A stretch of 64,000 nt of DNA, from positions 62,001-126,000 of the forward strand of contig NZ_JABWGX010000007.1 of the NCBI RefSeq assembly GCF_021730435.1, read 5' to 3'. This DNA is from Xanthobacter agilis. Its GTDB lineage: Bacteria; Pseudomonadota; Alphaproteobacteria; Rhizobiales; Xanthobacteraceae. Position numbers and translations under genes: made by a program. The notes below the pieces were generated by a model. It was not told the origin of the DNA and ran no database searches. It was given only the letters and a program-made list of their open reading frames with translations. Every line of letters begins with the position of its first letter. Position 1 is the first letter of the stretch. Below are positions 38,346 through 53,877 of this stretch, in pieces.

Positions 38346-38918
38346 TCAGCTCGCGGGGGCGATGAGGCCGGCGGCGGCGAGTTCCGCGCGCCGGCGGGCG
38401 ATGGCCACTTTCAGGTCGGCGAGGCTCTCGGCTACGTCGGTGGCCTCGAAGTCCTTGAGTTTCTGCGTGTTTTCAAGGTCGATGCGGCGCGGATAGACCG
38501 GCACCGGGCCTTCCGGCGCCATGGTGATGAGCTCCGGCGCGCTGTCGCAGGCGAAGACGATGCAGTGCACCCGGCACTTGCCGGCCTGGGCGAAGCAATT
38601 GGTGACGAGGGAATCGGAGATGCCGCAGACCGCCTTCGCCACCGTGTTGGAGGTGGCGGGGGAGACCACGAGCGTGTGATATTCGCCGTGATAGAACCGG
38701 CCCACCGAGGCGGACGAGGCGCTGTCGTCGCGATAGATATTCACGGTGTCCGGCAACGGCTCCTTGTCCTGCCGGTACATGCGCAGCACCTCGGCGGCGG
38801 CGGCCGAGATGAAGAGGTCCACGTCTCCCAGTTCGCGGATGATCTCCATGCTCTCCGTGAAGAAATGGCCGGAGCCCGTCAGGGCCCAGGCCCAGCGGGG
38901 ATGGGTCACTTTTTTCAT
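38346..38918 (-). CDS. Flavoprotein of the dihydromethanopterin reductase / AfpA type
   Basis: A 190-residue flavodoxin-like FMN protein of the flavoprotein (UbiX/Dfp-like) family, close to archaeoflavoprotein AfpA and to the dihydromethanopterin reductase (acceptor) proteins of methylotrophs. Seen: WALTGSGHFFTESMEII at the nucleotide site, VVSPATSNTVAKAVCGISDSLVTNCFAQA in the middle, and several cysteines (GKCRVHCIVFAC) reminiscent of an iron-sulfur or redox segment. It probably reduces dihydromethanopterin to the active cofactor. It lies between the kinase (15-bp gap) and the DHPS-like gene. Confidence 0.87.
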   Translation of the reverse strand: MKKVTHPRWAWALTGSGHFFTESMEIIRELGDVDLFISAAAAEVLRMYRQDKEPLPDTVNIYRDDSASSASVGRFYHGEYHTLVVSPATSNTVAKAVCGISDSLVTNCFAQAGKCRVHCIVFACDSAPELITMAPEGPVPVYPRRIDLENTQKLKDFEATDVAESLADLKVAIARRRAELAAAGLIAPAS

Positions 38919-38933
38919 CGGGGCCTTCGCCCT

Positions 38934-39578
38934 TCAAGGTTCGTGGGTCCTGCCCGCCGCTTCATATGGGGCAAGGACGGTGTCGAGGGTGGACGCGTCG
39001 TCCGCGGCGGCAAGCACAATATCGCCTTCGTAGCCGAGCGCCATGCCCTCGAAGGCGCCATCCACGAGACCGAGGCGGCTCCAGGTGGCGACATCCTCCG
39101 CCCGCGTGCCGGAACGGGGCGGGACGGCGGCCCCCTCGGCCTTCACCAGCAGCAGACGCGGGGCACCGAGCGCGCCCGCCAGCCACAGGGCGAGGCTGTC
39201 GGAGGTCACGTCCCAGCTCTCGGCGATCTCAAGATGACCGGTGAGCAGCGCCGCCGGAAACCACACGGCGGCACCGGGGCCGGCGGCGGCAAGCCCGGCC
39301 AGGGTGCGGGCGCCGCGCAGGCCGGGGGCGAGATCCTGGAGCATGCAGGCGGTCTGCTCCATGGCGAGGAGAGCCATGCGGTGGGCGGCGCCGTCGCTGA
39401 AGCCCAGGCGCGGCTGAGCGTCGCGCACCGCATCGGCGAAAACGCCGCCGCCCGGCACCAGCACCAGGCCGGCCAAAGGCGCAAGGCGCTCCAGCAGCAC
39501 GCGCGGTGGCGCTTCGCGCATGAGGCTGCCGCCAAGCTTGACCACGAGGGGCGGAAGGCATGGGGGGAGGGGGCTCAA
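38934..39578 (-). CDS. Amino acid kinase family protein, MfnE-like
   Basis: A 214-residue amino-acid-kinase fold protein. The N-terminal VVKLGGSL and LVLVPGGGVFADAVR motifs bind ATP and phosphate, and TSDSLALWLAGALGAPRLLLVKAEG is the typical second half. It is equivalent to MfnE, which phosphorylates the aminomethylfuran phosphate in methanofuran synthesis, and to the kinase gene of methylotroph H4MPT clusters. It appears to begin with TTG 39578: the only nearby ATG (39586) is out of frame. It is the first gene of the five-gene minus-strand operon. Confidence 0.85.
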   Translation of the reverse strand: MSPLPPCLPPLVVKLGGSLMREAPPRVLLERLAPLAGLVLVPGGGVFADAVRDAQPRLGFSDGAAHRMALLAMEQTACMLQDLAPGLRGARTLAGLAAAGPGAAVWFPAALLTGHLEIAESWDVTSDSLALWLAGALGAPRLLLVKAEGAAVPPRSGTRAEDVATWSRLGLVDGAFEGMALGYEGDIVLAAADDASTLDTVLAPYEAAGRTHEP

Positions 39579-39799: not shown

Positions 39800-40267
39800 A
39801 TGCGTCTCATTTTGGCTTCGATGCTCCTCATCGCCGCGACGGGCGCGGCACTTGCCGAGTCCGAGCCGGCCAAGGAGGCCGCGCCCGCCGCAAGCGAGGC
39901 CGCGCCGGCCGCCGTTGCCGCCACCGCCGAAGCGGGCGATCCCGCGAAGGGCGAGACTGTCTTCAAGAAGTGCATGGCCTGCCACGCCATCGGTCCGGGC
40001 GCCAAGACCAAGGTCGGTCCGCCCCTGAACGGCATCGTCGGCGCCAAGTGGGCGCACTTCGAGGGCTATCCCTATTCGGAGGATATCAAGGCCGGCGCCG
40101 CCGCCGGCAAGGTCTGGGACCTTGCCACCCTCGACAATTACGTGACCAATCCCAAGGTGCTCGCACCCAAGGGCAAGATGGCGTTTCCCGGCCTCAAGGA
40201 CGCGGCCGATCGCGCCAATCTGATTGCGTTCCTCTCCCAGTTCGACGCGGACGGCAACAAGAAGTGA
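39800..40267 (+). CDS. Class I cytochrome c (c2/c550-like), periplasmic
   Basis: A 155-residue secreted monoheme cytochrome. The signal peptide is at about 1-19 (ends ALA), followed by an Ala/Glu/Pro-rich linker of about 28 residues. One heme motif CMACH, the GPPLNGIVGAKWAHFEGYPYS region and the axial Met in KGKMAFPG are seen. It is likely a soluble electron shuttle to a terminal oxidase or from a periplasmic dehydrogenase. GAGGAA precedes ATG 39800. It is divergent from the cofactor operon and followed by a strong terminator. Confidence 0.93.
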   Translation: MRLILASMLLIAATGAALAESEPAKEAAPAASEAAPAAVAATAEAGDPAKGETVFKKCMACHAIGPGAKTKVGPPLNGIVGAKWAHFEGYPYSEDIKAGAAAGKVWDLATLDNYVTNPKVLAPKGKMAFPGLKDAADRANLIAFLSQFDADGNKK

Positions 40268-40658: not shown

Positions 40659-40683
40659 TAATAGCTTTCTTACAAAGCTAATT
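40659..40683. promoter_or_regulatory. Putative GntR operator upstream of the flavin reductase / monooxygenase operon
   Basis: A 25-bp dyad TAATAG-N13-CTAATT containing the perfect inner palindrome TAGCTTT-CTTAC-AAAGCTA (40662-40680), ending 20 bp before the flavin reductase start codon. ACAAAGCTAATT plus the flank CGCAT recurs at 51500-51516 ahead of the liv operon in the same dyad spacing. It overlaps a possible -10 (TAGCTT, 17 bp after TTGATC at 40639), which suits a repressor. The linked GntR protein (45420-46115) is the likely ligand. Confidence 0.65.
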
Positions 40684-40703
40684 ACGCATCGGCGAGCCCC
40701 GAG

Positions 40704-41219
40704 ATGTCGAGCCCCGACTTTCCTCCTCTGGATTCGCGCACCTTCCGACAGGTGCTGGGCCAGTTTGCCACCGGCGTTGCCGTGGTGACCGCCAGCGCCG
40801 CCGATGGCACGCGCATCGGCATGACCATGAGTTCCTTCAATTCGGTGTCGCTGGACCCGCCGCTGGTGCTGTTCTCGGTGGATCGGCGCGCCCACTCGCT
40901 GCCGGCCATGCGCGAGGCTCGCGGCTTCGGCATCAATATCCTGGGTGAAGGCCAGCGCGCCCTGTCCGATCGCTTCGCCCGCGCGCTCGACGATAAATGG
41001 AACGCGGTGGACCATCACCTTGGCGCCCATGACGTGCCGCTGCTGGCGGGCGCCCTCGCGCACCTCGAATGCGCGCCCCACGCCATCCATGAGGGCGGTG
41101 ACCACGAGATCTTCATTGCCCGCGTGCTGCGCGTATCTGCTGCCAGCGCCGAGGCCCCTCTCATCTTCTTTCGTGGGCGTTATCATGCGCTCGCGTCCAC
41201 CGACATGCCGCAGCGCTGA
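40704..41219 (+). CDS. NAD(P)H:flavin reductase component of a two-component monooxygenase
   Basis: A 171-residue split-barrel flavin reductase (HpaC/RutF-like). Seen: FRQVLGQFATGVAVVTA at the N-terminus, GMTMSSFNSVSLDPPLVLFSVDR at the flavin site, FGINIL and LSDRFA. It supplies reduced FAD or FMN to the HpaB-type oxygenase encoded 45 bp downstream. It is the first gene of a plus-strand operon behind the putative GntR operator. Confidence 0.93.
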   Translation: MSSPDFPPLDSRTFRQVLGQFATGVAVVTASAADGTRIGMTMSSFNSVSLDPPLVLFSVDRRAHSLPAMREARGFGINILGEGQRALSDRFARALDDKWNAVDHHLGAHDVPLLAGALAHLECAPHAIHEGGDHEIFIARVLRVSAASAEAPLIFFRGRYHALASTDMPQR

Positions 41220-41264
41220 GGCCCGGCCTCGGACCCCTGCGGCCAACATCGAAGGACTTTCCAG

Positions 41265-42749
41265 ATGATCAAGACCGGAGCCCAGCACACCGCCAGCCTG
41301 AAGGATGGTCGCGAGGTTTTCCTCGATGGCAAGCTGGTGAAGGACGTGACCACCCACCCCGCCTACACGCGTGCGGTGGCCTCGGTGGCGAAGATGTTCG
41401 ACTTTCACAGCGCGCCGGAAAACGCCGAGCTGATGACCTTCGCCACCGAGACCGGCACCCGCGCCAACCGCATCTGGCAGCTTCCGAAGAGCTATGAGGA
41501 TCTCGTGACCCGCCGCAAGGGTCTGGAGGCCTGGACCGAGCTGCACGCCGGCTTCCTTGGCCGTGCGCCGGACCATGTGGCCTCCTGCATCGCCGGGATG
41601 TACATGGGGCTCGACCAGTTCGAGGCCTATGACAAGGCCCGCGCCAATGCGCTCGCGGATTATTACCGCTACGCCCGCGACAACGACCTCTATCTCACTT
41701 ACGTCATCATCAATCCGCAGGCCGACCGCTCCAAGAACGCGGCGGGGCAGGCCGACCCGTTCCTCTCCGCCGCCATCGTGGACCGCGACGCCGAGGGCAT
41801 CACCGTGCGCGGCGCCAAGATGCTGGCCACTGGCGGCATCATGGCCAATGAGGTGTTCGTCACCTGCATCCAGCCGCTCCAGCCGGGCGAGGAGAAATAT
41901 GCCCTGTCCTTCGCCATTCCGATGAATGCGAAGGGCCTGAAGGTGCTCTCCCGCAAGTCCTATGAGGCGGCATCTCCCTCCGTGTTCGACAATCCGCTGG
42001 CGAGCCGCTTCGACGAGAACGACGCGGTGCTGTATTTCGACGATGTGAAGGTGCCGTGGGACCGTATCTTCATTGTCGACGATATCGCCATGACGGCGAA
42101 GCAGTTCCACGCGACCCCGGCCCATGTCTACCAGAACTATCAGGCGCAGATCCGCCTTTCGGTGAAGGTGCGGTTCCTGGCGGGCCTCGCCCGGCGCATC
42201 GCCGAGGTGAATGGCATCCTCAATTTCCCGCAGGTGCGCGAGATCCTGGGCCAGCTCGCCGCCGAGGTGGGCATGGTGGAGGCCTTCGTGACCGCCATGG
42301 AGGCCAAGGGCACCCACTACGGGCCTTATTTCATCCCCGATCGGCATACTCTTTATGCCGCCCAGACCATGGCGCAGCAGCTCTATGGCAAGCTCATCAC
42401 CACTTTGCGGGAGCTGGCCGGCGGCGGCCTCATCATGCTGCCCTCGTCGGTGCATGATTACGAGAATCCGGAACTTGCGGCCCTCATTCGCAAGACCCAG
42501 CAGTCGCCGGTGGCGAGCGCGGACGAGCGGGTGAAGTTCTTCAAGCTGGCCTGGGACGCGGTGGGCTCGGAGTTTGCGTCCCGCCACGCCCAGTATGAGA
42601 TGTTCTATGCGGGCGCGAGCTTCGTGGTGAAGAACCACTCGTTCCGCACCTACGATTGGGCGCGGGCCGGCAACCTCGTGGATCGCATGCTGTCGAGCTA
42701 TGACCTTGCCGACGAGGTGTCCGCGGCGCCCGCCCAGGCGGCGGAGTGA
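41265..42749 (+). CDS. HpaB-family FADH2-dependent monooxygenase (4-hydroxyphenylacetate 3-hydroxylase type)
   Basis: A 494-residue oxygenase component of the 4-hydroxyphenylacetate 3-monooxygenase family, which inserts oxygen into phenols or N-heterocycles with reduced flavin from a partner reductase. The acyl-CoA-dehydrogenase-like fold is recognisable: GTRANRIWQLPKSYEDLVTRRK near the N-terminus, TGGIMANEVFVTCIQP in the middle, and FHATPAHVYQNYQAQIRLSVK at the start of the C-terminal helical domain. Neighbours (cupin, amidase, DUF2848 hydrolase, LIV-type importer) are not those of the homoprotocatechuate pathway, so 4-hydroxyphenylacetate is unlikely to be the substrate; a pyrrole- or pyridine-type acid or aromatic amide is possible. 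Inference. Confidence 0.9.
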   Translation: MIKTGAQHTASLKDGREVFLDGKLVKDVTTHPAYTRAVASVAKMFDFHSAPENAELMTFATETGTRANRIWQLPKSYEDLVTRRKGLEAWTELHAGFLGRAPDHVASCIAGMYMGLDQFEAYDKARANALADYYRYARDNDLYLTYVIINPQADRSKNAAGQADPFLSAAIVDRDAEGITVRGAKMLATGGIMANEVFVTCIQPLQPGEEKYALSFAIPMNAKGLKVLSRKSYEAASPSVFDNPLASRFDENDAVLYFDDVKVPWDRIFIVDDIAMTAKQFHATPAHVYQNYQAQIRLSVKVRFLAGLARRIAEVNGILNFPQVREILGQLAAEVGMVEAFVTAMEAKGTHYGPYFIPDRHTLYAAQTMAQQLYGKLITTLRELAGGGLIMLPSSVHDYENPELAALIRKTQQSPVASADERVKFFKLAWDAVGSEFASRHAQYEMFYAGASFVVKNHSFRTYDWARAGNLVDRMLSSYDLADEVSAAPAQAAE

Positions 42750-42789
42750 GGCTGTCGCGCGCAAGACGTTTCAAGTAAGGACTGCCCCA

Positions 42790-43170
42790 ATGGCCATCAA
42801 CAAGATCCACGACGAGTTCAAGGCGGTCGATCTTTCGACCGGCTGGGAGGTGCCGCCGGGCTACCCTTCCGGCATCCAGCAGAAGGTTCTTTCCGGAATC
42901 CTGGACGAAAAGAACAAGAGCGGCTCGCGCACCCGCATCTTGCGGTTTAGCCCCGGCATCTACACAACGAAGCCGTTCGTGCATGATTATTGGGAAGAGG
43001 TGTTTCTGTTCTCCGGTGATCTCACGGTAGGTAATGACGAGAAGGGGGAGGGCGGGGAAGCCTTCCAGCCCTTCACCTATGCTGTGCGGCCGCCGGGTGC
43101 CTTCCATGGACCCTTCAAATCCGAGAAGGGCTGCATGCTGCTCGAAATTCACTATTACGATCCAGTCTGA
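42790..43170 (+). CDS. Small cupin domain protein
   Basis: A 126-residue single-domain cupin. The first cupin motif is atypical (PFVHDYWEEVFLFSGDLTVG) but keeps His and Glu ligands; the second is RPPGAFHGPFKSEKGCMLLEIHYYD. It could be a metal-dependent dioxygenase, isomerase or small-molecule binding protein acting after the monooxygenase. ATG 42790 has AAGGA ten bases upstream; the frame opens 30 codons earlier inside the preceding gene. 40-bp gap to the monooxygenase gene; a hairpin follows. Confidence 0.8.
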   Translation: MAINKIHDEFKAVDLSTGWEVPPGYPSGIQQKVLSGILDEKNKSGSRTRILRFSPGIYTTKPFVHDYWEEVFLFSGDLTVGNDEKGEGGEAFQPFTYAVRPPGAFHGPFKSEKGCMLLEIHYYDPV

Positions 43171-43187
43171 TCCGCTTCGCCACCCCG

Positions 43188-43216
43188 GCCCGCCCCGTGT
43201 CCCTGACGGGGCGGGC
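43188..43216 (+). terminator. 10-bp hairpin between cupin and amidase genes
   Basis: Perfect inverted repeat GCCCGCCCCG / CGGGGCGGGC with a 9-base loop, followed by TTCTCATT. It lies in the 65-bp gap after the cupin gene and can act as a partial terminator reducing amidase expression. Confidence 0.55.
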
Positions 43217-43235
43217 TTCTCATTGTGGTAACCTC

Positions 43236-44609
43236 ATGTCTGCTCTGCCCCTCCTGTCTTCGCCCACGCCCACCCTCGCCGTTCTCGCCGCGGATCTTGC
43301 CGCGGGCCGCACGACCGCGCGCGCCCTCACCGAGGCGTGCCTCGCCCGCATCCAGGACCCCGATGGGGAGGGCGCCCGCGCCTTTGTCTCCGTGGATGCC
43401 GAGGGTGCCGTTGCCGTTGCCGATGCCCAGGACGCGCTGCGCAAGGCGGGCGCCGCGACCTCGCCATTTGCCGGCATTCCGATTGCGGTGAAGGATCTGT
43501 TCGACATCGCGGGGCAGGTGACCGCCGCCGGCTCCCGCGTGCTGGCCGATGCCGCGCCCGCCACCCGCGATGCGCCGGCCGTGGCGCGGCTGCGCCGGGC
43601 CGGGTTCGTGATCGTCGGTCGCAACACCATGAGCGAGTTCGCCTATTCGGGCCTCGGCATGAACCCCCATTCCGGCGATCCCCGCGCCCCGTTCGAGCGC
43701 GCCATCGGCCGGGTGTCCGGCGGCTCCACCTCCGGTGGCGCGGTGGCGGTGGCGGATGGCATGGCCCATGCGGCGCTGGGCACGGACACCGGCGGCTCCT
43801 GCCGCATTCCGGCGGCGTTCTGCGGCATCACCGGGTTCAAGCCGACCGCGCGCCGGGTCCCGCGGGAAGGAGCTTTCCCGCTCTCCGCAACCCTGGACAG
43901 CGTGGGGCCGCTCGCCCGCTCCGTGGCCTGTTGCGCGGCTCTCGATGCGCTTCTTTCCGGCGCCGAGCCGGCACCGCTGGTGGCGCGCGCCGTGACGGGC
44001 CTGCGCCTGCTGGTGCCCACCACCATTGCCCTGGACGGGCTGGAAGGCGAGGTGGCGTCGACTTTCGCGGCGGCGCTGACTCGTCTTTCGGCGGCCGGTG
44101 CCCAGATCATCGAGGCGCCGTTCCCCGAGTTCGCCGACATCGCCCCCATGAACGCCAAGGGTGGCTTCACGGCGGCGGAGAGCTATGCCACGCATCGCAA
44201 GCTGCTGGAGGAGAAAGGCGATGCCTATGATCCCCGCGTCCTGGTGCGCATCCGCCGGGGCGCGGAGCAATCGGCGGCCGACTATCTCGACCTTGTGGCC
44301 GCCCGCGCGGCACTGGTGGAACATGCGACGGCGCGCCTTGCGCCGTTCGATGCGCTGCTGCTGCCCACCGCGCCCATCCTGCCGCCGCGCATCGCCGACC
44401 TCGCCACCGACGATGCGGCTTATGGGAAGGTGAATCTTGCCGCCCTGCGCAACCCCACCCTCATCAACATGATCGACGGCTGCGCCATCTCGCTGCCCCT
44501 GTCGGGCACGGGGGGCGCGCCGGTGGGGTTGATGGTGGCGGGTGCGGGGGGGCAGGACGCCGCGCTGCTGGCCATCGCGGCGGGCATCGAGGCCACCCTC
44601 AAAGGCTGA
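43236..44609 (+). CDS. Amidase signature family hydrolase
   Basis: A 457-residue Ser-cisSer-Lys amidase. The catalytic Lys86 is in GIPIAVKDLF, the Gly/Ser-rich signature is GGSTSGGA (about 162-169, containing the cis-Ser) and the nucleophile Ser188 is in TDTGGSCRIP. It hydrolyses a carboxamide, allophanate-like or lactam-derived bond to acid plus ammonia. It is the last gene of the operon with the flavin monooxygenase. MSALPLL at 43236 is chosen as the start; an upstream in-frame ATG at 43197 lies within the hairpin. Confidence 0.92.
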   Translation: MSALPLLSSPTPTLAVLAADLAAGRTTARALTEACLARIQDPDGEGARAFVSVDAEGAVAVADAQDALRKAGAATSPFAGIPIAVKDLFDIAGQVTAAGSRVLADAAPATRDAPAVARLRRAGFVIVGRNTMSEFAYSGLGMNPHSGDPRAPFERAIGRVSGGSTSGGAVAVADGMAHAALGTDTGGSCRIPAAFCGITGFKPTARRVPREGAFPLSATLDSVGPLARSVACCAALDALLSGAEPAPLVARAVTGLRLLVPTTIALDGLEGEVASTFAAALTRLSAAGAQIIEAPFPEFADIAPMNAKGGFTAAESYATHRKLLEEKGDAYDPRVLVRIRRGAEQSAADYLDLVAARAALVEHATARLAPFDALLLPTAPILPPRIADLATDDAAYGKVNLAALRNPTLINMIDGCAISLPLSGTGGAPVGLMVAGAGGQDAALLAIAAGIEATLKG

Positions 44610-44908
44610 ATGGGCTGGGGCTGAATGGGCTGACGGCGCTGGGCGCCCGCGCGCCCGGCTTCCATCGGGCGCCACCTCGTGTGCGCATGGAACGCGGCGG
44701 CACTCTGAAGCTGAATGTGGCGCGCTCGGGGGTCCTGCGCGCGTCGGCGGCGTTTCCGGTGCGCCTTAGCCGGAGTGAGGGAACTGGCCGGGAGGTGTTG
44801 CGGGTGTGAATCTGCCTTCGGCGCGGGCCGCCCGCCCTTTGAATGCGGCCCTTGCTGTGGCGGATGTCACGCATGGGACGGCGAAACGCCGCTCCGCAGG
44901 CGGAAGGT
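44610..44908. other. Spacer between amidase and small coiled-coil gene
   Basis: 299 bp between convergent genes. It contains a short repeated GGCTGAATGGGCT motif right after the amidase stop and otherwise nothing recognisable. Short frames here have no ribosome site. Confidence 0.4.
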
Positions 44909-45292
44909 TCAGCCGTTGCTCTGATTGAGGATCGAAAGGTCGGTCTTGGCGAGTGGCGCGTAAGGATTGGTCTCGTCGTCCGAGCTCTGGGACGTGGACG
45001 AATCGCTCGAATTTGACGCACTCGTGGTGCTCTGAGCGTTTTGCGCATTGAGGCGCGCCGTGAGATTGGCGATCTGAGCCTGAATCTGCTTGAGGCTTTC
45101 TTCGGCCTTCTGGACGGTCTTTTCCTTTTCGTCTTCAGTCAGCTCATCCGAACTGTTCGCATCGTCAATCTCTTTTTGCAATGCCTCCGCATTGGCCTTC
45201 AGCTTGGCGATGGTGGAAGAGAGGTCGGTGGATGCGCTGCTCGTCGAGCTGCTGCTGAGAAGTGATGTTGAGACGGAAGAAACGGAAACCAT
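44909..45292 (-). CDS. Small Ser-rich coiled-coil protein of unknown function
   Basis: A 127-residue protein. The N-terminus is Ser/Thr-rich (MVSVSSVSTSLLSSSSTSSAS). The centre (about 25-85) is a highly charged heptad-patterned helix with LKANAEALQKEI and IQAQIANLTARLNAQ. The C-terminus is Ser/Asp-rich and ends PLAKTDLSILNQSNG. No Cys, TM or signal peptide. A strong GGAGGT lies 7 bases before ATG 45292, which supports a real gene. Its composition recalls the larger low-complexity protein at 26949-27671. It sits inside the catabolic island between the two facing units, but nothing links it to catabolism. Confidence 0.7.
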   Translation of the reverse strand: MVSVSSVSTSLLSSSSTSSASTDLSSTIAKLKANAEALQKEIDDANSSDELTEDEKEKTVQKAEESLKQIQAQIANLTARLNAQNAQSTTSASNSSDSSTSQSSDDETNPYAPLAKTDLSILNQSNG

Positions 45293-45419
45293 AATTCACC
45301 TCCGCATGGCATATGCGGGGCGCATTTTCTAATAAATGGCTGGCGTCAAACTGTATTTCCGAATGTTCGCGCCATGTTGCCGAAGATTGCTCGACCGCGG
45401 ACCGCGCGGCCGGCTCCGC

Positions 45420-46115
45420 TCAGAGCTGGCGGTTGAGATTGTCGGCGAAGGAGCGGATATGGGTGCGCACCGCCGCTTCGGCGGCGTCCGGATCGCGGGA
45501 GCGCAGGGCTTCCACGATGGCGGCGTGCTCCACCACCACCCGGTGATGATGCTCCGGTGCGCGCAGGGAGACGAACCACACCCGTTGCGCTTTCTCGTGC
45601 AAGCTTTTCAGGATCTCGGCAAGCACCGGATTGCCCGCCGCCGCCGAGATGATGGCATGGAACTCGCGGTCGAGGGCCATCAGCTCCGCGATATCGCGCT
45701 TGGCGGCGGCGTCGATGCCCAGGGCCACGTTGGTGGCGAGGGCGGCCAGATGCCCGGGCTCCGCCCGCTCCGCGGCGAGGCGGGCGCAGAAGCATTCGTT
45801 GAGCAGGCGCACTTCCACCATGTCGTGCACCTCATCCTGGGAGATGGGGCGCACCACGATGCCCTTGCGCGGCAGCACCTCCACCAGGCTATCCCGCATG
45901 AGCCGGTCGAACGCCTGGCGTACCGGTGTGCGGCCGATGTTGAGCGCGGCGGAGACGGCCGCCTCGCTCAGCACTTCTCCGGGGCGGAACACGCACATGA
46001 TGATGCGCGCCTTGATGAGCTCATAGGCTTCGTCACGCAGCGAACGGGCCGGCGTCGCAGCATCGGACGGCCCCACGGATATCTCCTGCATGGCGTTTGC
46101 CACCGGCGTTCCCAT
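45420..46115 (-). CDS. GntR family regulator (FadR/FCD subfamily)
   Basis: A 231-residue repressor-type regulator. The N-terminal winged helix (LRDEAYELIKARIIMCVFRPGEVLSEAAVSAALNIGRTPVRQAFDRL) matches GntR. The C-terminal all-helical FCD domain carries the Asp/His metal-site pattern (DREFHAIIS, HHRVVVEHAAIVEAL, VRTHIRSF). It is the last gene of the livHMGF-binding protein-DUF2848 operon (56-bp gap) and probably binds the dyads at 40659 and 51487, with a pathway substrate as inducer. ATG 46115 is used; Met at 46091 is an alternative. Confidence 0.92.
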   Translation of the reverse strand: MGTPVANAMQEISVGPSDAATPARSLRDEAYELIKARIIMCVFRPGEVLSEAAVSAALNIGRTPVRQAFDRLMRDSLVEVLPRKGIVVRPISQDEVHDMVEVRLLNECFCARLAAERAEPGHLAALATNVALGIDAAAKRDIAELMALDREFHAIISAAAGNPVLAEILKSLHEKAQRVWFVSLRAPEHHHRVVVEHAAIVEALRSRDPDAAEAAVRTHIRSFADNLNRQL

Positions 46116-46171
46116 TATCGTCTCATTTCTGAATACGCCGGCCGCCGCGTGGTGACCGGCGAGATTGCCGG

Positions 46172-46858
46172 TTAGCCCGCCACCGGCAGGGTCATCACGT
46201 CGTAGCCGTGGCGGATGGCGCGGCCGAGCACCGGGTCCACCAGCTCATATTCGAAGCGCTCGGCGGGCCGGATGCCGCCATGGGCGGCGAGGGTGCCGCA
46301 GTACATCACCGCGCCGTCGGTGAACGGGGCGCCATAGCCGGAGAGGATGTCCGCGGGCGGCAGCATGGAAGCGACCGAGCCTTCCTGATACAGCACCTTC
46401 TTGCCGTCGAAGACCGCGTATGAGCGCAGGATGAGGTCGTCCCAATGGGGCGCCACTTCGTCCAGGGCCCACAGGTCCGGCGCGATCGGCTTGTCGCACA
46501 TCTGCTTGGACGCCGTGATGTTGTAGGTTTCGACCTTGCGGTCGGTGTGATCGGAGCCGACGCCGAGGTAATAGCGACCGCCCACCGCCACGATCACGAA
46601 CTCCACCTCGCCGGAGGAGTCGGCGCCCACGCACTCGATGGCGTCCGCGCCGGTCAGCCGCGCGGCGCCGACCCGATAATAGATGGGCGTGGAGGCGGGG
46701 CGCGGCACGCCCAGGGCTTCGAGTTCGGCGATGTGCTTTTCCAGCGCGGCCTTGTCGCGGCCGGTCCAGCCGGCGATGACCGCCGTGCGGATCAGCAGCG
46801 TGTCTTCATAGCTGCGGCCGTCGGCATGAATGGTGAAGGTGAGGGCGGTGCCTGACAT
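46172..46858 (-). CDS. DUF2848 family hydrolase (fumarylacetoacetase-like)
   Basis: A 228-residue DUF2848 protein, distantly related to the fumarylacetoacetate hydrolase superfamily. Seen: PIYYRVGAARLTGADAIECVGADSSGEVEFV, VGSDHTDRKVE and GTLAAHGGIRPAERFEYELVDP, the latter like the metal/substrate segment GTxxxTG of FAH enzymes. Members sit in catabolic clusters and are thought to cleave or hydrate a ring-fission product; no reaction is established that I know of. Placed between the binding-protein gene (93-bp gap) and gntR, it is probably a pathway enzyme. Confidence 0.87.
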   Translation of the reverse strand: MSGTALTFTIHADGRSYEDTLLIRTAVIAGWTGRDKAALEKHIAELEALGVPRPASTPIYYRVGAARLTGADAIECVGADSSGEVEFVIVAVGGRYYLGVGSDHTDRKVETYNITASKQMCDKPIAPDLWALDEVAPHWDDLILRSYAVFDGKKVLYQEGSVASMLPPADILSGYGAPFTDGAVMYCGTLAAHGGIRPAERFEYELVDPVLGRAIRHGYDVMTLPVAG

Positions 46859-46951
46859 CAGGTTTCCTCGAACAGATCGTGCAAAAAGGAGAGGGTGCCG
46901 GCGCCCCAGGTCAGGGCAGAATGGGGCGCCGGCCTTACGCGTCGGCCGAGG

Positions 46952-48124
46952 TCAGTTCGGCAGCCGCGTGTCGAGAAGGGTCCACTTGCCGCCCTTCACC
47001 TCGATCACATAGACCGGCTTCACGGCATCGCCGTCGGTGAAGGAGATGGAGCCCTCCATGGCGGGGTAGTCCTTCAGCGTGGAGAGCTGGTCCCGGATGG
47101 CGGTGCGCTCGGCGGCGACCTTCGCCTTGTCGCCGGTGACGCCGGCCCGCTTCATGGCCTCTGCGTAGAGGTAGACGATGTCATAGACCGACGCGTCCAT
47201 CTGGTTGGGGTCGGTGCGAAGGCCCGCGGCCTTGGTCCGGGTGGCGAACTTGTCCGTGAAGGCCTTGGTCTTGTCGTTGGCATCGGCGAAGAAGGTGGTG
47301 CCGATGGTGAGGTTCTCACCGGCGCCGTCCATGCGCTTGGGCAGGTCAGGGTCGGCGATGGTGGTGCCGCCGATGACGCGGGTGGAAACACCCTGCCGCT
47401 TCAGCTCCTTGGCGAGGTTCACGGCGCCTTCGGGCGGGGAGCCGAGGCCGACGATGTCCGGGCTGATCTGCTTGAGCTGGGCCACCTGGGGCGACAGGTC
47501 GAAGGCGCCGAGCTGGAAGTCCACCGAGCCCTTCAGCGGAATGGAGAACTTTTCGAACTCGGCCGGCACCACCTTGGTGCCGATGGACTTGGACACCACA
47601 TCGTCGGTGGCGTAGGCCGCCGCGCCCGAAGCCATGGGCAGCTTCTTGTCCTTGATGGCGCCGAGGACGGCATCGATCACCTTGCCTTCGTCGGTGGTGT
47701 TACGGAAGCCGTAGGTGAAGCCCTTGGTGAGGCCGGGGGCGGAGGAGGCCATGGACATCTGCGCCAGCCCCTCGCGCTCGCCCACCGGGAAGGTGGTGCG
47801 CACCTCGGAGGAGGAGAACGGGCCGATCACGGCCAAGGCGCCGGCGTCCTGGGCGAACGAGCGCAGGGCGGTGGTGGCCTGCTTGGGATCGCCGGCGGTG
47901 TCGAACTTCACCACCTTGATCTTCTTGCCGTTGATGCCACCCTTGGCATTGATTTCCTCGACCGCCATGTCGACGGCGATCTCGTTGGTATTGGCAAGGC
48001 TCACATAGGGGCCGCTCTTGGCCATCATATAGCCGAGGACCAGATCATCCTCGGCCCGCGCGGCGCCACTGGCGGTGAGCACCGCCGCCAGCATGGTGGC
48101 ACCCAACAGAACCTGCTTCTTCAT
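46952..48124 (-). CDS. ABC transporter substrate-binding protein (branched-chain amino acid/urea type)
   Basis: A 390-residue periplasmic binding protein of the LivK/peripla_BP_6 family, with a signal peptide at about 1-24 (ending ARA-E). Typical segments: GYMMAKSGPYVSLANTNEIAVDMAVEEINAKGGINGK and AVIGPFSSSEVRTTFPVGE. In such proteins from catabolic clusters the ligand is often an aromatic acid or amide rather than leucine. It lies 35 bp behind livF and ahead of the DUF2848 gene, so it defines the ligand of this importer. Confidence 0.93.
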   Translation of the reverse strand: MKKQVLLGATMLAAVLTASGAARAEDDLVLGYMMAKSGPYVSLANTNEIAVDMAVEEINAKGGINGKKIKVVKFDTAGDPKQATTALRSFAQDAGALAVIGPFSSSEVRTTFPVGEREGLAQMSMASSAPGLTKGFTYGFRNTTDEGKVIDAVLGAIKDKKLPMASGAAAYATDDVVSKSIGTKVVPAEFEKFSIPLKGSVDFQLGAFDLSPQVAQLKQISPDIVGLGSPPEGAVNLAKELKRQGVSTRVIGGTTIADPDLPKRMDGAGENLTIGTTFFADANDKTKAFTDKFATRTKAAGLRTDPNQMDASVYDIVYLYAEAMKRAGVTGDKAKVAAERTAIRDQLSTLKDYPAMEGSISFTDGDAVKPVYVIEVKGGKWTLLDTRLPN

Positions 48125-48159
48125 GCCCTCTACTCCTCTGAAAGGATTATGGTGACGGG

Positions 48160-48888
<729 letters not shown>

Positions 48889-48889
48889 G

Positions 48890-49651
48890 TCACACCTCCT
48901 CCGCGCCGATATAGGCCTCGCGCACCTTGGCGTTCTGCCGCACCTGCGACAGCGGACCCTCGGCGATCTTCTCGCCGAAATTCAGCACCACCACGTTCTC
49001 GCAGATGCTGTCCACGAAGTGCATGTCGTGCTCCACCACCAAGAGGGTGATGCCCTTGGCCATCAGCGCTTTCAGGTGATCGCGCAAAGCGTTGGTCTCG
49101 GACGGGTTGAGGCCGGCGGCGGGCTCGTCCAGCATCAGCACGCTGGCCCCGGCAAGGGTGGCGCGCACAAGGTCGATGCGCTTCCTCACCCCATAGGGCA
49201 GGGCGCCCACGGTCTCGTTCGCCCATTCCTCCAGGCCGCTTTCGGCAAGGGCGGCCCTCGCCTCCACCTTCCAGCGATGGTTGGGAAACAGGCGGTAGGG
49301 GGTGAGCAGCGCGCGCAGCGAGGTATTGCGCACATGCTGGCCCACCAGCATGTTCTCCAGCACCGTCAGATGCGACATCAGCCGGATGTTCTGGAACGAG
49401 CGGGCGATGCCGGTCGAGATCCGCTTGCGCGACGGCATGTGGGTGATGTCCACGCCGTTCGCGGTGATGGTGCCGGCATCGACGCCATAGACCCCGCTCA
49501 CCAGATTGAACACGGTGGTCTTGCCCGCGCCGTTGGGGCCGATGAGCGCGGTGGTGACACCCTTCGGCACCTCGAACGACAGGTCGGTGATGGCCCGGAC
49601 CCCGGCGAAGGACTTGTTGAGCCCCTGGATGGACAGCGCTGCGGTCATCAT
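48890..49651 (-). CDS. livG: ABC transporter ATP-binding protein (LivG type)
   Basis: A 253-residue ATPase. Walker A is GPNGAGKT, and GIARSFQNIRLMSHLTVLENMLVG is a LivG hallmark. The signature loop is divergent (LPYGVRKRIDLVRA), as usual in LivG; Walker B is VLMLDEPAAGLNP. The start is ATG 49651 or the adjacent ATG 49648; GGAGG lies just upstream. The first overlaps the livM stop as ATGA. Confidence 0.93.
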   Translation of the reverse strand: MMTAALSIQGLNKSFAGVRAITDLSFEVPKGVTTALIGPNGAGKTTVFNLVSGVYGVDAGTITANGVDITHMPSRKRISTGIARSFQNIRLMSHLTVLENMLVGQHVRNTSLRALLTPYRLFPNHRWKVEARAALAESGLEEWANETVGALPYGVRKRIDLVRATLAGASVLMLDEPAAGLNPSETNALRDHLKALMAKGITLLVVEHDMHFVDSICENVVVLNFGEKIAEGPLSQVRQNAKVREAYIGAEEV

Positions 49652-50499
49652 GCGGCCTCCGAGCTTTCGGCGGCGGGCTTGCGACGGGCGAAGCGCAGCA
49701 GCGAGGTGGTCACCAGCCCTTGCGGCCGGATCGCCATGAAGACGATGATGAACACCGCGAACAGGGCATAGCGCCACTGGTCGGAGGCGCGCAGCAACTC
49801 CGGCGCCAGGGTGAAGAAGGCCGCGCCCACCAGCGGGCCCCACACCGTCTGGGTGCCGCCGAACAGAACGTAAAGCACCGTGAAAACGGACAGCAGCACG
49901 TTGAAATGCTGGGCTTCCACGAAGTTGTAATGGTGGGCATAGAACGCGCCGCCGAAGCCGGCCACCGCCGCGCCCAAGGCGAACGCCGCCACCTGGATGC
50001 CCCGCACCGACACGCCGAGCAGGTCGGCGACCGTCGGATCGCTCTTCACCGCCGTGAGATAGAGCGCGAAACGGGTGCGCGAGAGGTAGAGCATGAGCAC
50101 CACCACCGCGGCGGCGGCGAGGAACACGCCGTTCGGCCCCACATAATCGCTGACCGGATAGCCGGCCGCGCCGCCCACCACCTCGAGGTTGAGGAACAGG
50201 GCCGAGATCACCTGCCCCAGGGCAAAGGTGGCCATGGCCAGATAGATGCCATGGGTGCGCAGCACCGGAATGCCGATGAGAAGACCGGTCAGGCCGGCAA
50301 GCCCCGCGCCCACCGGAATGGCCGCCCACATGGGCCAGGCATATTCGTTGGTGAGGAAGGCGGAGGCATAGGCGCCGATGGCCATGAAGCCGGCGATGCC
50401 GAGGTTCAACTGGCCCGCCGCCAGCGGCAGGTAAACCGCATAGGCGGCCATCACATTGAAGGCGAGGACGACGAGGACGCCGGTCAGATAGCCGCTCAT
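49648..50499 (-). CDS. livM: ABC transporter permease (LivM type)
   Basis: A 283-residue inner-membrane permease with about nine TM segments. The LivM motif GIYLAMATFALGQVISALFLN and FGGAFYAHHYNFVEAQ...FTVLYVLFGGTQTVWGPLVGA are conserved. The start codon shares one base with the livH stop (TGATG), so translation is coupled. Confidence 0.93.
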   Translation of the reverse strand: MSGYLTGVLVVLAFNVMAAYAVYLPLAAGQLNLGIAGFMAIGAYASAFLTNEYAWPMWAAIPVGAGLAGLTGLLIGIPVLRTHGIYLAMATFALGQVISALFLNLEVVGGAAGYPVSDYVGPNGVFLAAAAVVVLMLYLSRTRFALYLTAVKSDPTVADLLGVSVRGIQVAAFALGAAVAGFGGAFYAHHYNFVEAQHFNVLLSVFTVLYVLFGGTQTVWGPLVGAAFFTLAPELLRASDQWRYALFAVFIIVFMAIRPQGLVTTSLLRFARRKPAAESSEAA

Positions 50500-51371
50500 C
50501 ACAGCTTCTCCCGGGTGGCGGGGCGGCCGAGCAGCCCCTGCGGACGCAGAATGAGGATCACGAGCAGAAGCCCATAGACAGTGATGTTGACCACGTCGGC
50601 GCCGATGAAGCTGATGGACAGCACTTCCGCGAGGCCGATCAAGAGCCCGCCCAGCACCGCGCCCCAGATGGAGCCCATGCCGCCGACGATCATGGCGGCG
50701 ACCCCCTTGAAGCCGACACCTTCGCCCATGAACGGCGACACCTGCTGGTAATTGACCGCGAACAGCAGCCCCGCCACCGCCGCCAGCAAGGCCGAGGCGA
50801 TGAACAGCATGGGCACGAGCCGGCCGGTATCGATCCCCATGAGCACGGCCGTGTCGCGGTTTTCCGCAACGGTGCGGATGCAACGCCCGGTGGAGGTGGA
50901 CGACAGGAACCAGGAGAGCCACAGCACCAGCAGCACCGAGAGCGCCAGAGAGCCCAGTTGCGCGATGCCGATCACCAGCCCGCCGAGACGCAGGTTGAGA
51001 TCCGGCACCAGCGCCGGAAACGCCTGCTGGTCGGAGCCGAAATAGATCAGCATCAGGTTTTCCAGCAGCACCAGGAAGCCGAGGGAGGAGACCAGCGGCA
51101 CTTCCGGATCGCCCCCCTGCATGGGCCGGTAGGCGAAGCGCTCCACCAGCAGGGACACCAGCGCCGCCACCGCCAGCGCGGCGGCAAAGGCGAACAGGGT
51201 CGGCCAGCCGAACTTGATGAAGCCGTAGGCGACCATGCCGCCGAGCATGAACAGGCCCGGCAGGGAGAAATTGAGAAAGTTCAGCACGCCGATGGCAAGC
51301 GTGAAAGCCACCGCCATCAGCATGTAGATGGCCCCGAGCATCAGGCCGTTGACGATCTGCTGAGCGAGCAT
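50499..51371 (-). CDS. livH: ABC transporter permease (LivH type)
   Basis: A 290-residue permease and first gene of the minus-strand operon. Typical LivH segments: MLAQQIVNGLMLGAIYMLMA at the N-terminus, GVLNFLNFSLPGLFMLGGM, RCIRTVAENRDTAVLMGID and FKGVAAMIVGGMGSIWGAVLGG. ATG 51371 has GGGG close upstream; an in-frame ATG at 51383 would add four residues. The putative GntR operator is 116-140 bp upstream. Confidence 0.93.
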   Translation of the reverse strand: MLAQQIVNGLMLGAIYMLMAVAFTLAIGVLNFLNFSLPGLFMLGGMVAYGFIKFGWPTLFAFAAALAVAALVSLLVERFAYRPMQGGDPEVPLVSSLGFLVLLENLMLIYFGSDQQAFPALVPDLNLRLGGLVIGIAQLGSLALSVLLVLWLSWFLSSTSTGRCIRTVAENRDTAVLMGIDTGRLVPMLFIASALLAAVAGLLFAVNYQQVSPFMGEGVGFKGVAAMIVGGMGSIWGAVLGGLLIGLAEVLSISFIGADVVNITVYGLLLVILILRPQGLLGRPATREKL

Positions 51372-51486
51372 GGAACCCCGCATGAAACGCGCTCTGGACG
51401 CGTAGGAAACGCTTGGGCGCGGCCGGGACCGGCACCGTGCGCGATGAACCGCCGGAGTGCGCGGGCGCCACCGCGCCCCGCTCCGA

Positions 51487-51511
51487 AATTAGGTAATAGA
51501 CAAAGCTAATT
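51487..51511. promoter_or_regulatory. Putative GntR operator upstream of livH
   Basis: A 25-bp dyad AATTAG-N13-CTAATT. The right half and flank (ACAAAGCTAATT, then CGCAT one base later) repeat the sequence at 40672-40688 ahead of the monooxygenase operon, with identical half-site spacing. It overlaps the likely livH promoter, which suits repression by the GntR protein encoded at the end of this operon. Confidence 0.65.
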
Positions 51512-51770
51512 CCGCATTCGGTTCAAGCTGAAATTTCAAGCGTATTTCAGAATGGTCTCAGGGAAGTGACAGCCTGCCACAACTGCCCCAGAGGAAATGG
51601 CTTTTCAGCCAGCCATGCGTCCCTGTGCGGAGCCGGGATGTGCCGCAATCGACCACAGCCTGTCTAAAATGCAAGCGTGCAGACTTATTTTTGGGCAATG
51701 GGACGGTCCTCTCCCCGTGGCGTCGGAGTCCCGTCCCGCGTTGCACCCGGCCAGGCATTGAATTTTAAAA

Positions 51771-51840: not shown

Positions 51841-52743
51841 ATGAGCGAGCATTCGGTACTCAATCTGCGGCCTCTCGGCGGCCGGATCGGCGCGGAAATC
51901 TCGGACCTTCGCGTCTCCGGCGATCTTCATCCCGCAACCGTCAAGGCGCTCCACGCCGCGATCTTGAAGTATAAGGTGGTGTTCTTCCGAGGGCAGGACC
52001 ATCTGGACGACGCCACCCAGGAGGCGTTCGCCAAGCTGTTCGGTGGCCTCAACGAACACCCCACGCTTCCGTCCAAGGACGGCACCGAGGCCATCCTGGA
52101 GGTGGCGGCCGAGCGCGGCGAGGTGGCGAGCAACTGGCACGCCGATTTCACCTTCGTGGACACCTATCCGCAGCTCACCTTCCTGCGGCCGGTGGTGCTG
52201 CCGAGCCACGGCGGTGACACGCTGTGGGGCAATACCGAGGCCGCCTATGACGAACTGCCCGAGTCCCTGAAGGCGCTTGCCGAGCAACTGTGGACCCTGC
52301 ACACCAACGACTATGACTATGTGAGCGATCGTCCGGTCCGCGAAAAGGGCAAGATTCGCCACGGCGAGGTCTTCATCCGCAAGGTGTTCGAGACCGAGCA
52401 GCCGCTGGTGGCGGTGCATCCGCACACGGGCAAGAAGGTGCTCATCGTCGGCAATTTCATCCAGCGCATCATCGGCTACCGCTCGCCGGATTCCCACGAC
52501 CTGCTCCAGATCTTCCAGCGCCACGCGACCAGCCCGGAAAACACCCTGCGCTGGTCGTGGAAACTGGGCGACATCGCGGTGTGGGACAACCGCGCCACGG
52601 TGCATCGCGCGGTGGACGATTTCGACCGCGAGCCGCGCACCCTGCGCCGCTCCACCGTGGTGGGCGAGCCGGCGGTGAGCGTCGATGGGCGCCGGGCCTC
52701 CACCCGCATCGTCGGCGAGAAGCCGAAGGCTGTCGTCGCCTGA
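51841..52743 (+). CDS. TauD/TfdA family 2-oxoglutarate-dependent dioxygenase
   Basis: A 300-residue Fe(II)/2-oxoglutarate dioxygenase. The iron ligands His100 and Asp102 (NWHADFTF) and His255 (ATVHRAVDDF) and the 2-oxoglutarate-binding arginine (RTLRR, about 269-270) are present. Family members desulfonate taurine, cleave alkyl sulfates or degrade phenoxy acids. Linked to a sulfonate-type ABC importer, an organosulfonate or sulfate-ester substrate is likely, with sulfite or sulfate released as a sulfur source. TauD itself is similar in length, but taurine specificity cannot be claimed. Confidence 0.92.
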   Translation: MSEHSVLNLRPLGGRIGAEISDLRVSGDLHPATVKALHAAILKYKVVFFRGQDHLDDATQEAFAKLFGGLNEHPTLPSKDGTEAILEVAAERGEVASNWHADFTFVDTYPQLTFLRPVVLPSHGGDTLWGNTEAAYDELPESLKALAEQLWTLHTNDYDYVSDRPVREKGKIRHGEVFIRKVFETEQPLVAVHPHTGKKVLIVGNFIQRIIGYRSPDSHDLLQIFQRHATSPENTLRWSWKLGDIAVWDNRATVHRAVDDFDREPRTLRRSTVVGEPAVSVDGRRASTRIVGEKPKAVVA

Positions 52744-52805
52744 GACCCCTGCGGTCCGGGCGTTCCCCGCCGCCTGGACCGCTCATTCATCCGGAGCGTC
52801 GTCCC

Positions 52806-53867: not shown

Positions 53868-53877
53868 GGGGCCGGAC

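What the first reader, a model, noticed from the sequence alone, without database searches (positions are those of the whole stretch)
40659..51511. Convergent catabolic island bounded by a shared dyad
Seen: a plus-strand unit (flavin reductase, HpaB-family monooxygenase, cupin, amidase) and a minus-strand unit (livHMGF, binding protein, DUF2848 hydrolase, GntR regulator) face each other, and the outer promoter of each carries the same dyad. Known: two-component flavin monooxygenases hydroxylate aromatic or N-heterocyclic rings; amidases release ammonia; LIV-type importers in catabolic clusters carry aromatic acids or amides. Inference: one uptake-and-degradation pathway for an unassigned amide or N-heterocyclic acid (for example a pyrrole-2-carboxylate-like compound), with DUF2848 as the ring-fission hydrolase. 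I cannot match the full set to a described pathway.
Basis: partly seen in the sequence, partly recalled or inferred. Interest (0 to 1): 0.7.

Follow-up and report, generated by a model that had tools for sequence, protein, structure and literature searches.

The report
One split catabolic regulon, substrate unknown
Two gene groups that face each other on a soil-type bacterium's chromosome belong, by their conserved company and a shared DNA control site, to a single uptake-and-breakdown pathway for a still unknown ring compound, and a protein family of unknown function in it has the predicted shape of a known class of breakdown enzymes.

Summary
Both convergent units are present, and the shared motif ACAAAGCTAATTnCGCAT lies in both outer promoters; its 12-base core occurs only twice in the 4.8-Mb genome.

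One pathway is supported. Of 249 genomes searched in the order, 27 have this cupin (60% identity or more); all 27 have DUF2848 (59 of 249 overall), 24 within 16 kb. Some relatives carry reductase, HpaB, cupin, amidase and DUF2848 in one row.

The site is most likely a MarR operator. Where MarR is divergent from the reductase, TAGCTTTGnnnCAAAGCTA lies upstream of the reductase in 28 of 29 loci. In the window's genome the MarR homologue sits on another contig behind the same palindrome. Where the units are apart, 5 of 15 genomes carry the site just before the DUF2848 unit: five of the six Xanthobacter, Aquabacter and Azorhizobium genomes.

DUF2848 has the predicted fumarylacetoacetate-hydrolase (FAH) fold, and its metal residues align. 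The HpaB clade has an altered substrate-site signature in 81 of 81 sequences. The substrate is not established; an oxygenated N-heteroaromatic is most likely. New variant of a known kind.

The parts
40662..40689 (+). Operator-like palindrome TAGCTTTCTTACAAAGCTA plus the shared 18-mer ACAAAGCTAATTACGCAT, in the promoter of the reductase/HpaB unit
   Evidence: conserved at this promoter in many relatives
40704..41219 (+). Flavin reductase, 171 aa (expected to supply reduced flavin to the oxygenase)
   Evidence: Pfam Flavin_Reduct 3.9e-44; no NCBIfam equivalog cut-off reached
41265..42749 (+). HpaB-type two-component flavin monooxygenase, 494 aa, clade with R100/H104/Y146
   Evidence: Pfam HpaB_N and HpaB; below both HpaB equivalog cut-offs; the three residues conserved in 81 of 81 sequences
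42790..43170 (+). Small single-domain cupin, 126 aa, with a His65/Glu69/His106 set at the expected metal positions
   Evidence: Cupin_7; model and Foldseek; residues invariant in 37 sequences
43236..44609 (+). Amidase-signature hydrolase, 457 aa (start codon chosen by us)
   Evidence: Pfam Amidase 8.1e-79; NF005460 subfamily 676.3 bits against a cut-off of 447
45420..46115 (-). GntR/FCD regulator, last gene of the importer unit
   Evidence: Pfam GntR and FCD
46172..46858 (-). DUF2848 protein, 228 aa; FAH-fold hydrolase by predicted structure
   Evidence: Pfam DUF2848 5.6e-82; model and Foldseek; hhalign
46952..48124 (-). Periplasmic binding protein of the LIV/HAAT type
   Evidence: Pfam Peripla_BP_6 2.5e-52
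48160..48888 (-). LivF-type ATPase
   Evidence: ORF and homologues in relatives; named by reading, not by a family search
48890..49651 (-). LivG-type ATPase (start approximate)
   Evidence: ORF and homologues in relatives; named by reading
49648..50499 (-). LivM-type permease
   Evidence: ORF and homologues in relatives; named by reading
50499..51383 (-). LivH-type permease, first gene of the importer unit
   Evidence: ORF and homologues in relatives; named by reading
51490..51517 (-). Operator-like imperfect palindrome (AATTAGGTAATAGACAAAGCTAATT on the + strand) with the shared 18-mer, in the livH promoter
   Evidence: 11 bases TTAGGTAATAG shared within the genome only with the unlinked MarR promoter

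Best explanation
The two convergent units are one catabolic regulon. A LIV-type importer takes up a substrate. The HpaB-type oxygenase with its flavin reductase hydroxylates the ring. The cupin opens or rearranges the hydroxylated ring. The amidase cleaves the resulting amide or enamide. DUF2848, an FAH-fold metal hydrolase, finishes the opened chain to central metabolites. Transcription of both units is most likely held down by one MarR-type repressor that binds the shared palindrome and, in this genome, is encoded on another contig behind the same palindrome. Shown by computation: gene content, conserved company, the shared and partly conserved site, the predicted FAH fold. Inferred: that MarR binds the site, the order of the steps, the activity of the cupin, and that the substrate is an oxygenated aromatic ring, probably an N-heteroaromatic of the hydroxypyridine or hydroxypyrrole kind.
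For: Co-occurrence: of 249 genomes of the order (the window's own included), 27 have the cupin at 60% identity or more; 27 of 27 also have DUF2848 (59 of 249 overall), 24 of 27 within 16 kb and 23 within 10 kb. Of 9 plasmid records with HpaB at 60-80% identity, 9 carry DUF2848 within about 3 kb (two pairs are near relatives). Of 53 HpaB loci with full flanks, cupin is near 50, reductase 49, DUF2848 31, amidase 27. Reductase-HpaB-cupin-amidase-DUF2848 lie in a row on one strand in L056 and L062 and on a Thioclava plasmid.

Regulation: with MarR divergent from the reductase, the palindrome lies within 220 bases upstream of the reductase in 28 of 29 loci at up to 4 mismatches, 29 of 29 at up to 5 (shuffled mean 7.0, lowest shuffle 4). 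In the window's genome the reductase and livH promoters share a word found nowhere else, livH and MarR promoters another, and reductase and MarR promoters are the only two places with the extended palindrome at up to 3 mismatches, control 0. The MarR homologue is 66% identical. In five Xanthobacter, Aquabacter and Azorhizobium genomes with split units the site lies 56-99 bases before livH or DUF2848.

Enzymes: DUF2848 model pLDDT 93.9; 37 Foldseek hits at E 0.001 or better, 36 with FAH-type titles or recalled FAH-fold enzymes and one titled uncharacterised. hhalign puts E84, E86 and D103 on the FAH metal residues; all three are invariant in 34 sequences.
Against: No binding, expression or growth data. 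In 22 of 53 full-flank loci DUF2848 is not nearby; 7 of these 22 genomes gave no DUF2848 at all (L046, L054, L061, L065, L066, L078, L080), so reductase-HpaB can occur without it. With MarR on the same strand only 8 of 22, and with none detected nearby only 6 of 18, show the palindrome at up to 4 mismatches. Of 16 livH promoters scored in relatives, 4 have it at up to 4 mismatches and 8 at up to 5; in five of the others livH follows the cupin on the same strand. With the shorter palindrome a third genome site appears at 2 mismatches and the reversed control gives 6 per strand. Five Tardiphaga-type split genomes have the word inside a coding sequence, so I dropped them; six further regions, among them Aquabacter spiritensis, have no site at the unit. 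The DUF2848-amidase pair also occurs without HpaB or cupin. The sequence match of DUF2848 to FAH is weak: hhalign probability 50%, best PDB profile E 0.026.
Confidence: 0.6

Rival explanations
1. One pathway, but the dyad is read by the GntR protein encoded in the importer unit, and the MarR resemblance is secondary.
For: GntR is encoded in the importer unit; a GntR at 40% identity or more lies in 20 of 80 loci (16 of 53 with full flanks). FCD-type GntR proteins usually read palindromes near their own genes (recalled). In L007 and L010 the GntR gene lies elsewhere in the genome and could act from there.
Against: The palindrome stands at the reductase promoter in L020 and L032, where no such GntR was found near the HpaB unit or near the genome's DUF2848. 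It lies upstream of the reductase in 28 of 29 loci with divergent MarR. Genome-wide the palindrome also stands before the MarR gene.
Confidence: 0.15
2. One pathway, but for a benzenoid rather than an N-heterocycle: the amidase strips an amide from the imported compound, HpaB hydroxylates the phenol, and the cupin and DUF2848 carry out gentisate- or homoprotocatechuate-like cleavage.
For: Solved HpaB relatives bear names of phenol hydroxylases. LIV importers often carry aromatic acids (recalled). In L159 and L164 the amidase-DUF2848 pair lies next to genes that look like a homoprotocatechuate meta-cleavage set (read by eye from ORFs). UbiD, in some with UbiX, sits beside the core in several relatives.
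Against: The Tyr and His of the HpaB substrate site are replaced by His and Tyr in 81 of 81 (five of 13 solved relatives were shown as alignments). The amidase pairs with DUF2848, the late hydrolase, even without HpaB, which suggests a late amide rather than an entry amide.
Confidence: 0.3
3. The substrate is pyrrole-2-carboxylate, oxidised by a two-component pyrrole-2-carboxylate monooxygenase.
For: Pyrrole-2-carboxylate monooxygenase is listed among two-component group D flavin enzymes (PMC6165268, passages). Core relatives occur in Xanthobacter tagetidis, a thiophene degrader (PMC6624754, search listing).
Against: Core relatives are spread over many genera. A 5-hydroxypyrrole would need neither a cupin nor an FAH-type hydrolase to reach 2-oxoglutarate (inference). 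No sequence of the known enzyme was available to compare.
Confidence: 0.1
4. Two unrelated units that happen to be neighbours.
For: The two units are apart in several relatives, and seven genomes with the HpaB unit gave no DUF2848.
Against: Co-occurrence 27 of 27 by the cupin, single rows of genes, and the shared control site even in five genomes where the units are apart.
Confidence: 0.03

Closest known systems
kpi pathway for 4-hydroxypyridine, Arthrobacter sp. IN13 (PMC7356986, abstract and passages)
   Same: Same division of labour: flavin monooxygenase (KpiA), ring-opening dioxygenase (KpiC), hydrolase of the N-formyl product (KpiB), fumarylacetoacetate-family hydrolase proposed for the last step (KpiD)
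   Different: Other protein families: KpiA is FAD_binding_3, KpiC amidohydrolase-1, KpiB an alpha/beta hydrolase, KpiD a PF01557 member; here HpaB plus reductase, cupin, amidase-signature enzyme and DUF2848
4-hydroxyphenylacetate 3-hydroxylase (HpaB/HpaC)
   Same: Same two-component architecture and Pfam domains
   Different: Below the equivalog cut-offs (341.6 against 480.2 and 292.3 against 885.2 bits); Tyr/His of the substrate site exchanged for His/Tyr
Fumarylacetoacetate hydrolase superfamily (Cg1458, fumarylpyruvate hydrolases, HpcE)
   Same: Same predicted fold and aligned metal ligands
   Different: No Pfam PF01557 hit at E 0.001; 228-aa single domain with its own conserved motifs
TM1459, KdgF and acetylacetone dioxygenase small cupins
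   Same: Same predicted fold; H65 and H106 align with His residues of TM1459 that bind metal (alignment, E 0.037; metal role recalled)
   Different: Of the TM1459 ligand positions one His is Phe63 and one is Glu69 here, leaving 2 His + 1 Glu

Membership tests
HpaB / 4-hydroxyphenylacetate 3-hydroxylase oxygenase | HpaB_N and HpaB domains | tested here: met
   E 2.6e-90 and 1.1e-58
HpaB / 4-hydroxyphenylacetate 3-hydroxylase oxygenase | NCBIfam equivalog score | tested here: not met
   341.6 against 480.2 bits; 292.3 against 885.2 bits
HpaB / 4-hydroxyphenylacetate 3-hydroxylase oxygenase | Arg-Tyr-His at the phenol-binding positions (100, 104, 142 of the Thermus enzyme; roles recalled) | tested here: not met
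   Arg kept, Tyr to His104, His to Tyr146 in 81 of 81
Fumarylacetoacetate hydrolase superfamily (DUF2848) | FAH fold | tested here: met
   Predicted model only: Foldseek E down to 5.7e-10, TM about 0.6, on a pLDDT 93.9 model
Fumarylacetoacetate hydrolase superfamily (DUF2848) | Glu-Glu-Asp metal triad | tested here: met
   E84, E86, D103 align with FAH residues (probability 50%) and are invariant in 34 sequences; that these bind metal in FAH is recalled
Fumarylacetoacetate hydrolase superfamily (DUF2848) | PF01557 profile hit | tested here: not met
   Only the DUF2848 model hits at E 0.001, so a separate branch
Fumarylacetoacetate hydrolase superfamily (DUF2848) | Hydrolysis of an acylpyruvate-like substrate | not testable with these tools
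   Needs an assay
Amidase-signature family | Amidase domain above cut-off | tested here: met
   266.2 against 27 bits
Cupin metal oxygenase (Cupin_7-like) | Cupin fold with residues for a three-ligand metal site | tested here: met
   Predicted fold; H65, E69, H106 invariant; the metal itself is not shown
Cupin metal oxygenase (Cupin_7-like) | Ring-opening dioxygenase activity | not testable with these tools
   Needs an assay
kpi-type 4-hydroxypyridine pathway | KpiA, KpiC and KpiB families present in the cluster | tested here: not met
   The window's enzymes hit other families
MarR-controlled regulon | MarR gene with its palindrome at its own and the target promoters | tested here: met
   the livH form is imperfect and seen at up to 4 mismatches in 4 of 16 linked relatives
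MarR-controlled regulon | Direct MarR binding and ligand release | not testable with these tools
   Needs gel shift or footprint
Pyrrole-2-carboxylate monooxygenase system | Similarity to the characterised Rhodococcus enzyme | not tested

The most novel reading that the evidence does not exclude
A previously undescribed aerobic route for an N-heteroaromatic compound, widespread in Proteobacteria, in which a small 2-His-1-Glu monocupin opens the ring made by an HpaB-clade oxygenase with an exchanged substrate site, and DUF2848 founds a new branch of FAH-fold hydrolases paired with an amidase. In this genome the whole is one MarR regulon whose regulator gene lies elsewhere while the sites at both units and at the regulator gene stayed.
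Probability: 0.3. Interest if true: 0.75.

Novelty: new variant of a known kind. Interest (0 to 1): 0.55.

Why it matters
It gives a testable function class (FAH-fold hydrolase) to DUF2848, a family for which two searches of the held open-access library found no paper (the three hits are Plasmodium papers, seen as a listing only, where the matched word looks like a gene name). It also points to a five-enzyme pathway whose cupin marker is present in 27 of 249 genomes searched in the order. Because the control site is known, one inducer screen with a reporter on the reductase promoter could reveal the substrate. It also looks like a regulon held together by its operator after the units, and here even the regulator gene, have moved apart.

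Tried and rejected
GntR as reader of the dyad: kept as a rival only, because the palindrome tracks MarR.

Counting the five Tardiphaga-type genomes (L159-L163) as split-regulon evidence: rejected. One search showed the palindrome upstream of their amidase-DUF2848 pair in all five, but one search showed it inside a coding sequence (reading IAFDAKL), so all five were dropped. An earlier notebook entry still counts them as ten of ten; this report supersedes it.

Six further regions (L164-L169) of the 16 fetched had no site at the DUF2848 unit. One of them, L169, is Aquabacter spiritensis, a near relative, with a DUF2848 only 49% identical.

Raw inverted-repeat search of the promoters did not list the dyad among pairs of 10 bases or more; the pattern searches did.

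The open-reading-frame filter missed some genes (for instance reductases found by tblastn), so counts of MarR are lower bounds. For the window and L002 the absence of a linked MarR was checked with tblastn.

Paper searches for a described pathway or for DUF2848. No listed row matched the full set; several lists were capped (15 of 381, 10 of 19, 10 of 33 and 10 of 2,559 rows). led to the kpi paper, read as abstract and passages; PMC6165268 was read as passages; the others were seen as search listings only. The library lacks most subscription papers.

A second structural aligner was not available.
Full report
What is there. The plus-strand unit codes for a flavin reductase, an HpaB-type oxygenase, a 126-aa cupin and an amidase. 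The minus-strand unit codes for LivH, LivM, LivG, LivF, a binding protein, DUF2848 and a GntR/FCD regulator (the liv genes named by reading and by annotated relatives). The nearest relative in the genome collection is Xanthobacter sp. NM-59, with HpaB 95% identical and the same convergent layout (L002). One search kept the best 80 of 246 confirmed HpaB loci, so counts over these 80 describe close relatives only.

The shared site. ACAAAGCTAATTnCGCAT stands without mismatch at 40672 and 51500 and nowhere else in the window at up to 3 mismatches. The 12-base core occurs twice in 4.8 Mb. The palindrome WTAGCTTTGNNNCAAAGCTAW at up to 3 mismatches occurs at two places in the genome: the reductase promoter (1 mismatch) and another contig, C33, position 137919 (3 mismatches); the reversed control gave none. 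A shorter form, TAGCTTTN5AAAGCTA, finds the same two places at up to 1 mismatch; at 2 mismatches it adds one on C5, and its reversed control then gives 6 per strand, so 2-mismatch hits are chance. At C33 the palindrome lies upstream of a MarR gene. An 11-base word, TTAGGTAATAG, is found only in the livH promoter and that MarR promoter. So the three promoters are tied pair by pair. These words were picked after seeing the sites.

Why MarR. A MarR family (f1) was found in 58 of 80 HpaB loci; in 51 of 69 loci scored it lies within 1.5 kb of the reductase. tblastn found none in the window or in L002. The C33 gene is 66% identical to the linked MarR of L003. Of the 69 loci scored, MarR was divergent from the reductase in 29, and 28 of these have TAGCTTTGnnnCAAAGCTA at up to 4 mismatches in the 220 bases upstream of the reductase (29 at up to 5; the exception is L039; shuffled mean 7.0, lowest shuffle 4). 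With MarR on the same strand it is 8 of 22, with none detected nearby 6 of 18. In loci with a different GntR gene in place of MarR (L065, L066, L078, L079, L080) the best match is at background level, 6 to 8 mismatches.

The livH promoter. In relatives with a LivH at more than 50% identity, 16 upstream regions could be scored: 4 have the palindrome at up to 4 mismatches (L002, L003, L015, L036), 4 more at 5, and 8 at background; in five of those 8 livH follows the cupin on the same strand and needs no promoter of its own.

Regulon without linkage. Of 53 loci with full flanks (21.4 kb or more), 22 lack a nearby DUF2848. Of these 22 genomes, 15 have DUF2848 elsewhere, at 16 places, and I fetched all 16 regions. 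In five (Xanthobacter tagetidis, Aquabacter cavernae, Xanthobacter oligotrophicus, Xanthobacter sp. YC-JY1, Azorhizobium oxalatiphilum; DUF2848 71-80% identical) a palindrome with 1 to 4 mismatches lies 56-99 bases before livH or, in X. tagetidis, 82 bases before DUF2848. Shuffles give 0.105 such sites per region and 0.0017 per 300 bases. Long open frames cross four of these five sites, as is common in such GC-rich DNA; I recognised no gene in them (by eye). These five are related, so they are not five independent cases. A sixth near relative, Aquabacter spiritensis (L169), has a DUF2848 only 49% identical and no site. In five Tardiphaga-type genomes the match lies in coding sequence and was dropped; six regions in all, L164-L169, have none at the unit.

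Conserved company. In 249 genomes of the order, the window's own included, 27 carry the cupin at 60% identity or more. All 27 carry DUF2848 (59 of 249 overall; hypergeometric 5e-20, without correction for relatedness), 24 within 16 kb. The three exceptions are G211, G236 and G047. Among 53 full-flank HpaB loci (half the query covered, identity at least 40-50% by gene): cupin 50, reductase 49, DUF2848 31, amidase 27, GntR 16; of the 31 with DUF2848, 21 also have the amidase. Nine of nine plasmid records with HpaB at 60-80% identity carry DUF2848 within about 3 kb. Single-strand rows reductase-HpaB-cupin-amidase-DUF2848 occur in L056 and L062 and in Thioclava; in Caballeronia and Roseateles the same genes lie together with LIV-type importers. 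Seven genomes with the HpaB unit gave no DUF2848.

Variants that speak to function. DUF2848 and amidase form a pair without HpaB or cupin nearby on Phyllobacterium, Pantoea and Paracoccus plasmids. In Bradyrhizobium sp. 187 a FAD_binding_3 monooxygenase stands with DUF2848 and cupin; a similar gene lies near DUF2848 in L015 and in X. tagetidis, and near HpaB in L059 (read by eye). Several Bradyrhizobium-type loci and Nitratireductor add UbiD and, in some, UbiX, a TPP enzyme and genes that look like a tripartite tricarboxylate importer (importer names by eye). So the hydroxylase and the importer can be exchanged, while cupin, amidase and DUF2848 look like a reusable lower pathway (inference).

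Enzymes. DUF2848: model pLDDT 93.9 from an alignment of 34 sequences; Foldseek top hit Cg1458, E 5.7e-10, TM 0.62; of 37 hits at E 0.001 or better, 36 are FAH-type by title or by recalled fold and one is titled uncharacterised. hhalign against eight FAH-family proteins of the same genome: E 1.7e-4, probability 50%, with E84, E86 and D103 on the FAH Glu-Glu-Asp residues. Of nine PDB sequences matched by the profile at E up to 10, six are FAH family, best E 0.026. No direct sequence match in the PDB. Cupin: model pLDDT 93.9, top Foldseek hits TM1459, KdgF and acetylacetone dioxygenase; H65, E69 and H106 invariant in 37 sequences; H65 and H106 align with TM1459 His residues (ligand roles recalled). 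HpaB: Arg100 kept, His104 and Tyr146 in 81 of 81, where the five solved relatives shown (of 13 listed) have Tyr and His (role of these residues recalled).

Mechanism. Import by the LIV system; hydroxylation by HpaB with reduced flavin; opening or rearrangement by the cupin; release of nitrogen by the amidase; final hydrolysis by DUF2848. The order is inferred by analogy with the kpi pathway of 4-hydroxypyridine, where flavin monooxygenase, ring-opening dioxygenase, hydrolase and, as its authors propose, an FAH-family enzyme act in turn (PMC7356986, abstract and passages). The protein families differ, so this is not a member of that pathway.

Limits. No wet data. The MarR assignment rests on co-occurrence of gene and site. 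The substrate is open; a benzenoid with an amide remains possible at about 0.3. Pathway literature was sought in ten searches of one open-access library, some with capped lists, and the library misses most subscription papers.

Noticed in passing
G000 contig C33, about 137978-138595 (L090:7979-8596): MarR gene, 66% identical to the one beside the reductase in L003, unlinked here and next to what looks like a short-chain dehydrogenase gene, with the same palindrome in front.
   Followed up: yes
window 44909-45292, minus strand: Small Ser-rich ORF of 127 aa between the two units; among the fetched HpaB loci a homologue was clustered only in the nearest relative L002.
   Followed up: no
window 38346-39578, minus strand, and 39800-40267, plus strand: A flavoprotein-family gene and an amino-acid-kinase-family gene (resembling tetrahydromethanopterin-pathway genes, recalled) and a cytochrome c-like ORF (by eye) stand where relatives have MarR.
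   Followed up: partly
window 51841-54708: A TauD-type dioxygenase and what looks like a sulfonate or taurine ABC importer (by eye) start directly beyond the livH promoter, divergently transcribed.
   Followed up: no
L026, L027, L028, L029, L030, L033: A second HpaB (56-59% identical to the window's) with an amidohydrolase of the enamidase kind (name recalled), an AA_synth (PF06684) protein and its own LIV-type importer lies beside the core cluster in Bradyrhizobium: perhaps a sister N-heterocycle pathway.
   Followed up: partly
L164:5799-9500: Two ORFs that look like AtuA and AtuA C-terminal proteins (by eye), then amidase and DUF2848, next to a LIV-type importer and genes resembling a homoprotocatechuate meta-cleavage set.
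   Followed up: no
L132, L133: DUF2848-amidase pairs with DUF4286 and an MFS transporter on Phyllobacterium and Pantoea plasmids, a different front end for the same pair.
   Followed up: no
G000 contig C24, 23684-24475: A second HpaB-type gene in the window's genome, not linked to this cluster; region fetched but not studied.
   Followed up: no
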